Positions 2,418-51,767 of a DNA stretch of 64,000 nucleotides are shown here, in pieces. A program made the position numbers and the translations under genes. Source of the DNA: Obelidium mucronatum (taxonomy: Eukaryota > Chytridiomycota > Chytridiomycetes > Chytridiales > Chytriomycetaceae); assembly GCA_025765595.1 (NCBI GenBank), contig JAIVFH010000025.1:288179-352178 (forward strand). The letters run 5' to 3'. The notes below the pieces were generated by a model that worked only from the letters and a program-made list of their open reading frames with translations, did not search any database and had not been told where the DNA came from. Numbering within the stretch: position 1 is the first letter of the stretch; every line of letters starts with the position of its first letter.

Positions 2418-4060
2418 ATGGAAAGTGATTCTGACCCCGACTGGATCGATGTCGATGAGCATCAAGGGACGCAACGAGGCGACGACGAGACTGAATCGAG
2501 CCGCGAATCTGAATCTGACGAGGAAGAGTATTGGGATGCAGAAGCAGATGATGATGATGGTGATGATGACGTAGGTGGAGAACAAGCGGCAGCACTTGAG
2601 CCCAACAGTCGCTCCACGTTCCCAAAAGCAGCTTTATTCAACCATTTCCGCTCGAGAGACTCTGCAATTGTCTTTTCTCCCTTTGCAAAACAGCTCCTTC
2701 TTTCAAAGTTTCTGCCATCAGCAAAATTGCTTTCTTTACCCCACCACTTGCTGTGGAAGGAATACACTGCAAAACCATACTGTGCCCAATTCAGCGACGA
2801 TGGTTCGCTCTTCTACAGTGCAACTCAGGACTTTCAGCTGCATCTTTACAATGCCCACAACAACTTCTCCAAGATTGCTACAATTAATGCGTGTCCTGGT
2901 CGCTGGACTATTACCGACTGCGATATGAGCAAAGATTCACGCTCTCTTTTGTACAGCTCGATCCACCGCACTATATTCTTTGTAAATCTGGCTCCTCTTG
3001 TGAACAACGAATATGTAACAGAGGATGACGATTATTCCTCGCATATTCCCCTTTCGATGGGAGAGAACTGTGGTATTTGGTCTATTCGGTTGAGTGATGA
3101 TGGCAAGGAAGTCGTTGCTGGGGCGTCTGAAGGTCTGATTTTTGTATACGACGTGGAATACAAGCGCGTTCTTCATCGGTGAGGGAACTTACGTTTCTTT
3201 TCCTTGCCTCTACCCTTACCAGCTCTTATTCATACTCACTGATTAATCGTTACAGTGTTGATGGCCACCAAGATGATGTCAATGCAGTAACGTTTGCAGA
3301 TCAGTCCTCCAACCTCCTTCTCAGTGGTTCAGACGACGGTCTTTTGAAAGTCTGGGATAGACGTAGCTCTCTTCAATCCAACACGCCTGCCGGAATTCTC
3401 CCAGGCCATACCGAGGGAATCACTTTCATCACCACAAAGGGACGTGATGGACGCACAGCCGTTTCCAACGCCAAAGATCAAACAATGAAACTTTGGGATC
3501 TCCGTAAACTGGTGTCTGCTTCGGGTGAAAAAGCGCGTGCCCTTTCGCGTGTTGATTATAGCACTGGATTCGATTATCGTTGGCAGCCGTACCCCAAAAA
3601 CCATGCGAGGACGAATCCTCATGATGTCAGTGTGGGTACTTTTAAAGGGCATTCCGTGTTGAGAACTTTGATTCGATGTCATTATTCGCCGGCGTCTACT
3701 GGGCATCGGTATTTGTATACAGGTAGTGCAGATGGGAGTGTGTACATTTATGATCCAGTGTTGAATCCGTCGGGTGGAGAGCCTATTCGTGTTCTTAATA
3801 GTTCTCCACTGAGAAGCAATGAAGGTGCAATGACTGCTGAGGAAGAGGAAGCGGTTTTGGAACGTTTTGCTCCTGACGATAGAGAAATGACGGCTGCAGA
3901 GCGGAGCTATCTCTTGAGACTGTTGAGACAAAGGCAGCGACAAATATCTGGAAGAGAAGTTTGTGTACGTGATGTTGCTTGGAATCCAGATGGTCCACAA
4001 ATTATTGCAAGTGTTTGGAGGAATGAGGAAGGTGGATTGGAATCTTTTGAATATCAGTGA
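2418..4060 (+). CDS. DCAF11: DCAF11/WDR23-like WD40 protein, CUL4-DDB1 substrate receptor
   Basis: Two exons (2418-3178, 3256-4060) encode about 521 residues. An acidic N-terminus (MESDSDPDW, then runs of Asp/Glu) precedes WD40 repeats with the family's diagnostic segments: DDVNAVTFAD, SGSDDGLLKVWDRR, SNAKDQTMKLWDLRK, DYRWQPYPK, LRTLIRCHYSP and CVRDVAWNPDG. In animals DCAF11 presents substrates, including NRF2/SKN-1, to the CUL4-DDB1 ubiquitin ligase. That role is inferred here from family identity. I chose the ATG at 2418; an in-frame ATG at 2352 would add 22 residues. An insertion of about 45 residues rich in Glu/Arg (roughly residues 435-480) lies before the last repeat. The gene converges on the Groucho gene, 145 bp away. 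Confidence 0.87.
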
Positions 4061-48677: not shown

Positions 48678-48851
48678 TTGGTGTTAAACGTGGGACAACC
48701 CAAAAGAACTTGGGGAATGTTTTTATTTTTATTGTTATCACACATTGTCAACAATGGAAAGCGACAAAGGCGCGATCGATATCTTCCAACCAATTGGATA
48801 CACTTGTGTCGACTTTGAGCAGTTTCAGGCAGTCCTGGATAGGAATGCATC

Positions 48852-51767
48852 ATGTTATTTTTTCGCTTTTTGGGACATCACCGCACCATCAAGCTTCGCG
48901 CCCTGACTTCTCTAACCCCCGCCACCGCCCCAACCCGTCTCTTTCCGCTTCGTCTTCTTTCCACGACAATGGCGCAATCGCTGAAGCCCAAGTACTCGTA
49001 CGAATCCATCACTGCGGCCGCCGAGCAGCAGGACCTCGTGCTGCGCGGCGCCAAGGCCATGGCGCGCAGCGGCTACGCCTCGAGCGCCTCGAGCGCCTCG
49101 AGTGGCTCGAGCGCCTCGAGTGCGTCTGCTTCCAGCACACCGAAACCCGCAAACAACAACGCCAACAACAGCAACAACAACGCTGCCCCGTTCGCGTTCG
49201 CAGCAATCGCAGGCCGCGACGCCCAGGCGCACCAAGTCGCCGAGGCGCTGAAGGACATCAGGCGCCACGGCGGCTACAAGGTCGGCGCGCTGGCGCCCTC
49301 TTCAACGCCGCAAGCACAAGCACAACCACAACCACAACCACAAACTACGGACAACTCCGACATTGCCGTGCAGATCAGATCAGTCACCGAACGAATCAAG
49401 GTGCTCAAGTCCGAGAAGGCGGACAAGGCCCTGATTGACGAACAAGTGGCGTTGCTCAAAGAACTCAACCAGCGCAAGGCTGCCGGCGGTTCCGAAGATG
49501 CTTCAAAAAAGTTTGAGCTAAAGACTCCAAAGGTAAACTCGAGAGAGTCAGATTCTCCTGGAATAATGACAACGAAAAAAAAAAAAAAAAAAAAAAGGGT
49601 ACACGCGACTTCTCACCTGAAGAAATGGCCATCCGAGAGAAAATGTTTACAACAATCACATCCGTCTTCAAACGTCACGGAGCTGTCACTATCGACACTC
49701 CCGTCTTTGAACTCAAGGAGATTCTTACTGGAAAGTATGGTGAAGATTCCAAGCTCATTTACGACCTCAAAGACCAAGGGGGTGAGCTCTCATCTCTGCG
49801 CTACGACTTGACTGTTCCATTTGCTCGTTTCTTGGCCATGCACGGAATCTCAAACATCAAGCGATACCACATTGCCAAAGTATACCGTCGTGACAACCCA
49901 TCCGTCAACAAGGGGCGTATGAGAGAATTCTTCCAATGCGATTTTGATATTGCTGGAGAATATGGATCCATGATTCCAGACGCTGAAATTTTGAAGGTGG
50001 TTGTTGATGTTTTGGATGCCGTGGATATCGGAAAGTTCAAGATCAAGGTAAAATTTCTGATGCAGTCGGTTTTTTTTTGGAAGGCCGTGTGTCGTCTAAA
50101 GCGCTTTTTTTTTCCCTTTTTCTGTTTGTTTTTATAGATAAACCACAGAAAAATTCTTGACGGTATGTTTGAAGTCTGCGGTGTCCCTGCGGAAAAGTTT
50201 AGAGCCATCTCGTCTGCGGTTGACAAGTTGGACAAGTCTCCATGGGCTGAAGTCAAGAAGGAAATGGTTTCTGAGAAGGGTCTCGATGAAGAAGTAGCAG
50301 ACAGAATTGAACAATATGTCAAGCTCTGTGGTGAGGCAATTTCTCAATCGCCTATTCTTTTCTCAAACAATCGATTCATATCAGGTGCCGTTGAAATTTG
50401 TGATACACTTGAGGCGGACGCCAAATTCAGCTCCAGCAAACGCGCTATGGAAGGTGTTGCAGACATGCGCTTGCTCTTCAAGTACTTGGACCTCTTTGGA
50501 GTCAGCAACAAAATGTCCTTTGACTTGAGTCTCGCGAGAGGTTTGGACTACTACACTGGTGTAATTTACGAGGCTGTTTTCGAATCAAGTTGAGTCTTTT
50601 TATTTATTTATTTATTTATTCTTTTTACTTTCATCTCACCTCTTGGCCACCCGCCGTTTTTTTTAAAGCCTCCGATGAGACCAGTGGAGTCGGATCCATT
50701 GCAGCCGGAGGTCGTTACGATGAACTCGTTGGAATGTTTAGTCCAAGCGGAAAAAAGATTCCTTGTGTCGGAGTCTCTGTTGGAATCGAACGTGTCTTTG
50801 CCATCCTCCTTGCCAAAATGCGTGCAAACAAAGCCACCTCGAAGCCGCGCACAACTGCCACGGAAGTCTACCTAGTCGGTCTTGGGAACGGACACTTGGA
50901 AGACCGAATGAAACTCGCCAAGACACTGTGGGACAATGGTGTGGCTACTGAGTTCACATTCAAGGAAAAGCCCCGACGCGATGCTCAATTCAAGGTTGTT
51001 GGTGAAGAAGGAATTCCAGTGAGTATTGTGTTTGATGATGCCAAGTTTGGGGCTGGTAAAGTTCAGGTTGAGGATAATGTTGGCGAGGCGAAAGAAAAGG
51101 TTGTTGTGGAGTTGAAGGATGTTGTCAAGACTGTGGAAAAGTTTTTGGGACGTGGTGGTAGTGTTGGCGGTGCAGTTGTTGTTGTTGGGAAAGCATCCCG
51201 TTCGCGCAGCGCATCTCCAGCGAAACCTGCCGCCGCCGTACCGGCGGCCAAGAAGGCCGCGGAAGAAGATGACTTTGACCTGTTTGCTTCTGAAGACGAA
51301 GAAGAGGATGCGGAAAAGGCTGCCCTTGTTGCTCAGCGTCTCAAGGAGTACAATGAAAAGAAGGCTGCCAAACCAAAGCCTGTTGCCAAGTCCATGGTTA
51401 TTCTTGATGTTAAGCCGTGGGATGATGAAACTGATATGAAGGCGTTGGAAGCGAATGTACGAGGTATTGAGATGCCAGGCCTTGTCTGGGGAACTTCTAA
51501 GCTGGTTGCCATTGGATGTAAGTTGATGAATTCATTTTTTTATTTTGACTGTTTATTTATGTGGTATTTGATTATTTGTAGATGGAATCAAGAAGCTCCA
51601 GATCACTGCTGTAGTAGAAGACGATAAGGTATTTTTTTTCTTTCTGGAGACAGTGATGTTAACCCTTGTTTTAATGACAGGTTGGAGTGGACGACTTGAG
51701 TGAAAAAATTGAGCAATTTGACGAGTTTTGCCAGTCTGTGGATGTTGCTTCTTTCAACAAGTTATAA
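48852..51767 (+). CDS. HTS1: Histidyl-tRNA synthetase fused to eEF1B guanine-exchange domain
   Basis: Seven exons (48852-49532, 49598-50047, 50138-50330, 50385-50588, 50669-51517, 51582-51628, 51681-51767) give about 836 residues in one frame. Residues 1-39 look like a mitochondrial presequence; Met40 (ATG 48969) would start a cytosolic form, as in yeast HTS1. A WHEP-like helix pair lies at about 175-215. The class II core has [10 protein letters not shown], motif 2 ([20 protein letters not shown]), His[14 protein letters not shown], and motif 3 [10 protein letters not shown]. The anticodon-binding domain ends near residue 690. Without a stop the same exon continues into an acidic eEF1B-like region ([16 protein letters not shown]) and a full eEF1B GEF domain ([44 protein letters not shown]). 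It would both charge tRNA-His and recharge eEF1A with GTP. Confidence 0.9.
49576..49596 (+). repeat. A homopolymer abutting a 3' splice site in HisRS intron 1
   Basis: About 21 A residues lead directly into the G of the AG acceptor at 49596-49597. The intron has no polypyrimidine tract next to its 3' splice site. Confidence 0.75.

What the first reader, a model, noticed from the sequence alone, without database searches (positions are those of the whole stretch)
48852..51767. Histidyl-tRNA synthetase fused to the eEF1B GEF domain
Seen: a single exon (50669-51517) runs without a stop from HisRS motif 3 and the anticodon-binding domain into an acidic eEF1B-like region ([16 protein letters not shown]) and the GEF domain, which then continues through two introns with frame kept to FNKL-stop. 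There is no ATG between the end of HisRS and the acidic region, which argues against a separate internal gene. Known: eEF1B subunits normally carry a GST-like N-terminus, and in animals valyl-tRNA synthetase associates with eEF1B; I know of no HisRS-eEF1B fusion. Inference: the HisRS takes the place of the GST-like module, which would link charging of tRNA-His to GTP loading of eEF1A.
Basis: partly seen in the sequence, partly recalled or inferred. Interest (0 to 1): 0.93.

Follow-up and report, generated by a model that had tools for sequence, protein, structure and literature searches.

The report
Histidyl-tRNA synthetase with built-in eEF1B exchanger
In a family of water fungi (chytrids), the enzyme that loads histidine onto its tRNA has been joined end to end with the protein domain that re-arms the next factor in protein synthesis, and copies of that same domain have also been attached to several unrelated enzymes.

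Summary
The window (Obelidium mucronatum, Chytridiomycota) encodes one open protein: HisRS with two in-frame starts, a 41-residue linker, the eEF1B acidic region and a complete eEF1B GEF domain ending FNKL. I add one intron (50331-50384); the 797-aa form equals the deposited protein model. Six taxa of four genera in Chytriomycetaceae share the architecture; the HisRS models of the sister taxa Physocladia and Entophlyctis end where the extension begins. It is the only HisRS found in the genome. A canonical eEF1Balpha, eEF1Bgamma and eEF1A are also present, so the fusion is an extra exchanger.

The larger finding: the linker-acidic-GEF tail is portable. In the same genome it also sits on an acireductone dioxygenase-GST protein and on a short novel N-terminus; in relatives on UDP-galactopyranose mutase. 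The three fused tails here share two introns that eEF1Balpha lacks and are under strong purifying selection. In several lineages, though not all, tails resemble their own eEF1Balpha more than the same fusion elsewhere.

Most likely it is a working exchange factor tethered to HisRS, recruiting and recharging eEF1A where His-tRNA is made. Hand-off itself is inferred. No description turned up in the searches made.

The parts
48852..49532 (+). Exon 1. ATG 48852 opens a 39-aa presequence (0 Asp/Glu, 5 Arg, 1 Lys: mitochondrial-signal-like); ATG 48969 ([13 protein letters not shown]...) opens the presumed cytosolic form; also a Q/N/S-rich stretch and a WHEP-like helix pair
   Evidence: WHEP-TRS match is weak and below its cut-off (20.8 v. 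32.5 bits); human HisRS aligns from P0002 residue 135. Use of both ATGs is inferred
49598..50047 (+). Exon 2: start of the HisRS catalytic domain (GTRDF...)
50138..50330 (+). Exon 3: HisRS catalytic region
   Evidence: intron 50331-50384 is spliced out in P0002, and the P0004 protein has no insert there
50385..50588 (+). Exon 4: HisRS catalytic domain with ARGLDYYTG
50669..51517 (+). Exon 5: HisRS AAGGRYD stretch, anticodon-binding domain (to about 51147), linker, acidic region, first half of the GEF domain; no stop and no intron at the junction
51148..51270 (+). Junction linker, 41 residues (GRGGSVGG...[14 protein letters not shown]...AAEED), with an SASPAK stretch as in eEF1Balpha; predicted disordered
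   Evidence: alignment: the sister HisRS models end at ...RFL just before it; AF2 pLDDT < 50 at P0002 635-682; C16 eEF1Balpha linker
51271..51393 (+). eEF1B central acidic region and connecting helix ([33 protein letters not shown]...)
   Evidence: PF10587 6.1e-10
51394..51767 (+). eEF1B GEF domain, coding pieces 51394-51517 / 51582-51628 / 51681-51764, stop 51765-51767; penultimate Lys of FNKL kept
   Evidence: PF00736 profile 1-88 of 88; aligned to the last residue with yeast eEF1Balpha chains 1f60_B and 1ije_B
51518..51581 (+). Intron, phase 1 (IG|Y), at the same place in the fused tails on C54 and C146 and absent from eEF1Balpha on C16
51629..51680 (+). Intron, phase 0 (DDK|V), likewise shared by the tails on C54 and C146 and absent from C16 eEF1Balpha

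Best explanation
The gene makes a bifunctional protein: the only histidyl-tRNA synthetase found in the genome, carrying at its C-terminus the eEF1Balpha linker, acidic region and catalytic GEF domain. Shown by sequence: one frame, complete domains, the same architecture in six taxa, strong purifying selection on the tail. Inferred: the flexible linker lets the GEF bind eEF1A-GDP and exchange its nucleotide while HisRS makes His-tRNA, so eEF1A is recruited and re-armed at the synthetase. The catalytic C-terminal Lys has to stay at the chain's end, which would explain why the fusions I take as real have the GEF last. The tail derives from eEF1Balpha as a portable 3'-terminal block (linker-acidic-GEF) added at the C-terminus of several enzymes in Chytriomycetaceae; on HisRS most simply once, in the common ancestor of Obelidium, Siphonaria, Chytriomyces and Podochytrium, after which tails were kept alike within some lineages (old gene conversion, re-capture, or common adaptation to eEF1A). 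Direct hand-off of His-tRNA to eEF1A is possible but is the least supported step.
For: Open junction and complete domains. Deposited model identical. Orthologous fusions P0002, P0004, P0005, P0006, P0008, P0012; P0127, a partial model, runs into the acidic region and leaves it. HisRS core tree: these 7 rows are one side of a branch, support 85/78; Physocladia and Entophlyctis next to them. Junction alignment. One HisRS locus: 2 matches, both exons of this gene, 4 of 4 candidates scored. eEF1A present. YN00 dN 0.054, dS 1.23 for HisRS tail v. eEF1Balpha, and dN/dS 0.02-0.06 over the 5 pairs that gave a value; ARD-GST and short-X tails identical in 126 of 126 residues with 43.7% of third positions changed. 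Penultimate Lys in 37 of 37 tails, fused and free, of the tree set.
Against: No RNA, proteome or biochemical data. Free eEF1Balpha is retained, so the tail is not needed for bulk exchange. Other fusion partners (acireductone dioxygenase, UDP-galactopyranose mutase) have no evident use for GTP loading of eEF1A, which weakens a tRNA hand-off story. A long form sent to mitochondria would carry an idle tail. HisRS tails as one clade are rejected (p-AU 0.027), so repeated acquisition is not excluded; the HisRS fusion clade (85/78) is not starred. That Physocladia and Entophlyctis are unfused rests on gene models, and P0127 shows that a model can lose its tail.
Confidence: 0.75

Rival explanations
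1. Tether or dosage, not hand-off (a narrower form of the best explanation, not exclusive with it): the tail is a mobile eEF1A-binding module kept because it adds exchange activity or attaches diverse enzymes to the abundant eEF1A; HisRS is merely one recipient.
For: Same tail on ARD-GST, UGM and a short peptide; strong constraint on the tails.
Against: HisRS is a translation enzyme whose product is eEF1A's substrate, and among chytrid enzyme fusions in the listing the HisRS one is in the most taxa (HisRS 6, ARD-GST 2, UGM 2).
Confidence: 0.45
2. Two products from one gene: alternative 3' ends, internal start at ATG 51394, or cleavage of the linker give separate HisRS and GEF.
For: In-frame ATG at 51394, the first residue of the GEF match; long low-confidence linker.
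Against: No intron or stop at the junction; the acidic region upstream of that ATG is kept in the six complete fusions.
Confidence: 0.15
3. Gene-model or assembly artefact joining neighbours.
For: Such merges seem to exist in the databases: P0007 (C. hyalinus, partial) joins an eEF1Balpha tail to an FYR-domain protein, and a 67.5%-identical FYR gene lies next to eEF1Balpha on C16 here; P0015, P0060 and P0062 also have the GEF before another protein, P0095 resembles P0062 by its domain list only.
Against: Here the join is inside one stop-free exon of raw sequence, and five other taxa have it, with the GEF last.
Confidence: 0.03
4. Neutral appendage: the tail is tolerated and not used.
For: Canonical eEF1Balpha retained.
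Against: dN/dS about 0.02-0.06 at near-saturated dS, and retained catalytic C-terminus.
Confidence: 0.05

Closest known systems
eEF1Balpha (eEF1B GEF subunit; Pfam EF1_GNE + EF-1_beta_acid)
   Same: Acidic region and GEF domain complete, the GEF colinear with yeast chains 1f60_B/1ije_B to the last residue; linker with the same SASPAK stretch
   Different: In place of the N-terminal GST-like module stands a whole HisRS; two introns inside the GEF that this genome's eEF1Balpha lacks
Cytosolic/mitochondrial HisRS of opisthokonts (HARS1, HTS1; names recalled)
   Same: Aligned with human HisRS 4g85 over P0002 135-631; two in-frame starts
   Different: C-terminal extension of 167 residues (41 linker + 126) beyond the usual end
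Vertebrate ValRS-EF1A/EF1B complex
   Same: A synthetase held together with eEF1B (passages of PMC4394549: ValRS needs its GST-like N-terminal domain to bind EF1Bbeta; the domain could be restricted to Deuterostomia)
   Different: There it is non-covalent and by a GST-like domain; here the catalytic GEF itself is in the same chain, on another synthetase
Archaeal LeuRS-EF1A association
   Same: Synthetase that binds the elongation factor, suggested to help tRNA cycling (passages of PMC4394549)
   Different: In those passages no exchange factor and no fusion is involved
eEF1B-kinase fusion of Thecamonas trahens
   Same: A precedent for an eEF1B GEF fused to an unrelated enzyme (one passage of PMC3938643: 'apparent eEF1B-kinase protein fusion')
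   Different: Kinase partner; only mentioned in the passages seen

Membership tests
Histidyl-tRNA synthetase | Complete class II HisRS catalytic core and anticodon-binding domain | tested here: met
   PF13393 profile 1-308 of 308, PF03129 2-93 of 94; human HisRS aligned over P0002 135-631, E 1.9e-174
Histidyl-tRNA synthetase | HisRS signature stretches ([16 protein letters not shown]) kept | tested here: met
   identical to human in the alignment; that these are signature motifs is recalled
Histidyl-tRNA synthetase | Charges tRNA-His | not testable with these tools
   only HisRS locus found, so presumably essential
eEF1B GEF subunit | Full EF1_GNE domain and acidic region | tested here: met
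   PF00736 1-88 of 88, PF10587 1-28 of 28
eEF1B GEF subunit | Catalytic Lys as penultimate residue (yeast K205, recalled; [quoted passage not shown]
   FNKL end aligned with the yeast QKL end; Lys in 37 of 37 tails
[quoted passage not shown]
   no such match on P0002; HisRS stands there. So it is not an eEF1Balpha proper
eEF1B GEF subunit | Exchange activity on eEF1A | not testable with these tools
   eEF1A gene present
Gene-model merge of neighbours | Separate stop/start or intergenic gap at the junction | tested here: not met
   stop-free single exon

The most novel reading that the evidence does not exclude
In Chytriomycetaceae the catalytic end of eEF1Balpha has become a portable plug-in: a 3'-terminal exon block repeatedly attached to unrelated enzymes (HisRS, acireductone dioxygenase-GST, UDP-galactopyranose mutase, short peptides) and often kept alike with the lineage's own eEF1Balpha, wiring those enzymes to eEF1A; on HisRS it makes a one-chain charging-and-loading machine that hands His-tRNA to an eEF1A it has just re-armed.
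Probability: 0.3. Interest if true: 0.92.

Novelty: new variant of a known kind. Interest (0 to 1): 0.82.

Why it matters
Whether aminoacyl-tRNA passes directly from synthetase to elongation factor has mostly been argued from non-covalent complexes. A natural covalent synthetase-GEF fusion, shared by several genera with apparently unfused sisters, gives a clean test: the same HisRS with and without its GEF. That the same catalytic tail also sits on metabolic enzymes, under strong selection, asks a new question: why would eEF1A's exchanger be worth attaching to methionine salvage or galactofuranose synthesis?

Tried and rejected
Considered and rejected: (a) fusion as an annotation artefact: rejected at DNA level, though likely artefacts of this type exist (P0007, with an FYR gene next to eEF1Balpha on C16). 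(b) C146/C432 as a Pus10-GEF fusion: Pus10 (PF21238, two exon pieces) ends with its own stop about 200 bp before the acidic exon; the GEF there has a short start of its own, MTVIEQYVWVGWGW-KSGA, whose donor site I chose and whose peptide recurs in Siphonaria P0287, so I take it as a separate gene. (c) Recent gene conversion as the sole cause of lineage-wise likeness of tails: synonymous differences inside Obelidium are near saturation, so any conversion is old. (d) ThrRS-eEF1Balpha of Nowakowskiella (P0119): carries a whole eEF1Balpha and odd insertions, may be a merge; not counted as a fusion. (e) The N-terminal SYES motif elsewhere in the genome: HisRS itself and one hit at E 1.99 on C636. 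(f) Literature: no row of the listings (2 of 2 papers; 20 of 36; 9 of 10; 12 of 818; 15 of 36; 12 of 92) names, in its title or the start of its abstract, a HisRS-eEF1B or ARD-eEF1B fusion. Of five papers passages were seen; no paper was read whole. (g) AF2 model: pTM 0.51, and the superposition on HisRS is poor (rmsd about 12), so no relative placement is claimed; besides the linker, HisRS stretches 221-258 and 285-296 and the last five residues 793-797 are below pLDDT 50. Rows left out of the GEF tree (37 rows: 36 database proteins plus the Obelidium short-X): among others P0007, P0011, P0015, P0018, P0060, P0062, P0095, P0314, the five NDK rows and the eEF1Bdelta rows; canonical rows were a choice from the 120. 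HisRS tree: 25 of the 120 listed rows, chosen by taxon. Rhizoclosmatium HisRS did not appear among those 120; I could not look further.

Full report
What is there. Reading of the window between 48852 and 51767 gives a seven-exon gene on the + strand. All six introns are GT..AG. My first model missed a 54-nt intron, 50331-50384, which the deposited protein and the Siphonaria protein show; the corrected model contains the deposited protein P0002 exactly, starting at the second in-frame ATG (48969). P0002 is named Obelidium mucronatum BDR26DRAFT_933577 and its contig length equals that of the window's contig, C25, 352178 bases. Obelidium is placed in Chytriomycetaceae, Chytridiales.

Domains. On P0002, Pfam finds tRNA-synt_His 189-513 (full profile), HGTP_anticodon 537-628, EF-1_beta_acid 675-702 and EF1_GNE 713-797 (full profile). 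Human HisRS aligns over 135-631; the GEF aligns to its last residue with yeast eEF1Balpha chains 1f60_B and 1ije_B, and the penultimate Lys is kept. The Lys is in 37 of 37 tails, fused and free, used in the tree. That a key lysine governs exchange is taken from the title of Pittman et al. 2006, seen in a reference list; its number, K205, is recalled. A passage of PMC8807479 says that eEF1Balpha disrupts the Mg2+ pocket of eEF1A. Exon 5 (50669-51517) has no stop; its in-frame ATGs are at 50734, 50818, 50908, 51394, 51436 and 51472, i.e. none between HisRS and the acidic region.

Two starts. The 39 residues before ATG 48969 hold no Asp or Glu, 5 Arg and 1 Lys. With a single HisRS locus found (two matches, both this gene) this looks like one gene serving cytosol and mitochondria, as recalled for fungal HTS1; that is inference.

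Conservation. A search restricted to the tail, with candidates of 0.55 to 1.75 times the fusion's length, gave 692 proteins, 120 listed. Six listed are HisRS-GEF: Obelidium P0002, Siphonaria sp. JEL0065 P0004, Chytriomyces hyalinus P0005, C. confervae P0006, Chytriomyces sp. MP71 P0008, Podochytrium sp. JEL0797 P0012. A search with the HisRS core (7155 hits, 120 listed) shows EF1_GNE on the same six and on no other listed row; P0127 (C. cf. hyalinus JEL632, marked partial) runs into the acidic region (KKDDDDDFD) and then leaves it. In the HisRS core tree of 25 rows these seven lie on one side of a branch (85/78, not starred), next to Physocladia obscura and Entophlyctis luteolus (90/90), inside a starred group of nine. 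In the junction alignment those two end at ...KRFL and ...RRFL, while the fused ones continue through a variable linker into a conserved DFDLF. So the tail seems to have been added at the native C-terminus. The caution is that unfused status rests on gene models.

Not the only exchanger. The genome has a canonical eEF1Balpha on C16 (GST-like N-terminus, 246 aa, equal in length and contig to P0235), an eEF1Bgamma on C86 (EF1G domain), and eEF1A-like genes over the family cut-off on C16 and C70. The fusion is therefore additional.

The tail elsewhere in the genome. The GEF family hits five places and a DNA search adds a 35-base remnant on C434. C54 encodes acireductone dioxygenase, then a GST whose pieces are 56-68% identical to this genome's eEF1Bgamma, then linker-acidic-GEF: 564 aa in my model, 559 aa as P0003, which places one exon start differently. 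Rhizoclosmatium sp. JEL0117 has the same triple fusion (P0009), and C42 holds two further ARD matches. C146 and its 97% alike copy C432 carry a short N-terminus joined to the tail, recurring in Siphonaria (P0287: MTIVEQYVWVGWGWQKSGA...). The C432 copy reads out of frame in the last exon. The three fused tails (C25, C54, C146) share two introns, phase 1 at IG|Y and phase 0 at DDK|V; eEF1Balpha on C16 lacks both and has another, phase 1 before KPKP. In C54, and by my splice choice in C146, the tail starts right behind a phase-1 intron; in HisRS no intron marks the junction. A common intron-bearing tail ancestor moved as a 3'-terminal block is the simplest reading.

The tail in relatives. UDP-galactopyranose mutase carries it in Entophlyctis (P0010, P0011) and Physocladia (P0013, a shorter model); identity of the mutase by PDB hits for P0010, residues 273-763 on 6-496 of 3ukh, then the GEF. 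Rhizoclosmatium P0278 joins two copies of a SYES motif, also seen at HisRS N-termini, to the tail. Outside chytrids, JGI contigs encode a nucleoside diphosphate kinase-GEF protein (5 of 120 listed rows; only P0014 was read and scanned). Rows where the GEF comes before another protein (P0007, P0015, P0060, P0062) look like merged neighbours; for P0007 this is supported by an FYR gene lying next to eEF1Balpha on C16.

Selection and likeness. Over 126 codons the HisRS tail and eEF1Balpha differ with dN 0.054 and dS 1.23 (YN00); HisRS v. ARD-GST 0.037 and 1.54; HisRS v. short-X 0.046 and 1.73; ARD-GST v. eEF1Balpha 0.072 and 1.13; short-X v. eEF1Balpha 0.069 and 1.73. ARD-GST and short-X are identical in 126 of 126 residues while 43.7% of third positions differ (YN00 failed on that pair). 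This is strong constraint; dS is near saturation and should not be read as a date. In the tail tree (37 rows, 126 columns kept) many tails group by lineage: HisRS of Podochytrium with its eEF1Balpha (99/95), Chytriomyces hyalinus/confervae HisRS with their eEF1Balpha (98/89), the Obelidium and Siphonaria tails with Obelidium eEF1Balpha (98/91), UGM tails with Entophlyctis/Physocladia eEF1Balpha (95/91). Not all do: the HisRS tail of Chytriomyces sp. MP71 is unplaced, and the Rhizoclosmatium rows fall apart (ARD-GST tail beside Podochytrium at 89/68, SYES tail beside the Obelidium group, R. globosum eEF1Balpha unplaced). HisRS tails as one clade are rejected at p-AU 0.027 and the two ARD tails at 0.0058; the UGM pair does group (95/82) and HisRS of Obelidium and Siphonaria group weakly (63/74). 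If HisRS was fused once, this points to old conversion or re-capture within lineages, or shared adaptation to the lineage's eEF1A; the alignment is short and these cannot be told apart here.

Structure. AF2 with 40 aligned rows gave mean pLDDT 71.8, pTM 0.51; residues 635-682 (linker and start of the acidic region) are below 50, GEF strands and helices are formed at mostly 70-80, the last five residues are below 50, and a helix (11-33) of higher confidence covers the N-terminal SYES motif. The 50 rows shown of the Foldseek listing are HisRS and GCN2 HisRS-like entries. This fits folded units on a flexible tether; no relative placement is claimed.

How it likely works. HisRS is a dimer (recalled for the family), so two GEFs on linkers would surround each enzyme. 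eEF1A-GDP would be caught and recharged beside the site where His-tRNA is released. Shown: the parts, their completeness, their conservation. Inferred: activity, recruitment. Speculative: direct hand-off. The same tail on enzymes outside translation speaks against a purely tRNA-based purpose and for a more general tethering to eEF1A.

Known context. PMC4394549 (passages) describes ValRS bound to EF1A/EF1B with need of its GST-like domain, and LeuRS-EF1A in archaea; PMC3938643 (passages) mentions an apparent eEF1B-kinase fusion in Thecamonas. No row in the listings names a HisRS-eEF1B fusion in its title or abstract start; several of those listings were capped, and the library holds open-licence papers only. 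The architecture is visible in public protein records (one labelled simply histidine---tRNA ligase, P0006), so the sequence is public though I found no description.

Noticed in passing
L010 2309-4633 (C54): Acireductone dioxygenase fused to an eEF1Bgamma-like GST and the eEF1B GEF tail, a triple fusion also present in Rhizoclosmatium (P0009).
   Followed up: partly
L008 3748-4423, minus strand (C146) and C432: Short novel N-terminus (MTVIEQYVWVGWGW) joined to the GEF tail, downstream of Pus10; similar protein in Siphonaria (P0287). The C432 copy is out of frame in its last exon.
   Followed up: partly
L024 3978-4012, minus strand (C434): 35-base, 97% match to the last codons and stop of the GEF tail, isolated just downstream of a tRNA-Trp gene; perhaps the remnant of another insertion.
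   Followed up: partly
P0014, P0019, P0021, P0027, P0077 (JGI contigs): Proteins with a nucleoside diphosphate kinase domain and an eEF1B GEF, organism unknown: a GTP maker fused to a GTP loader. Only P0014 was read.
   Followed up: no
P0010, P0013: UDP-galactopyranose mutase with a C-terminal eEF1B GEF tail in Entophlyctis and Physocladia, the two sister taxa whose HisRS models lack it.
   Followed up: partly
window 48969-49100; P0278; P0010: An N-terminal motif around SYES/SYEA shared by HisRS proteins, the mutase fusion of Entophlyctis and a Rhizoclosmatium protein in which two copies are joined directly to the GEF tail.
   Followed up: partly
window 48754-48906: Upstream ATG opening a 50-codon reading frame that overlaps the first HisRS ATG and ends before the second; could bias start choice.
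   Followed up: no
P0119: ThrRS followed by a whole eEF1Balpha in a Nowakowskiella gene model; may be merged neighbours or a second synthetase fusion.
   Followed up: no
L025 about 2871-2893, minus strand (C86): The eEF1Bgamma GST region matches in two frames that overlap without an intron, as if a base were gained or lost there; left unresolved.
   Followed up: no
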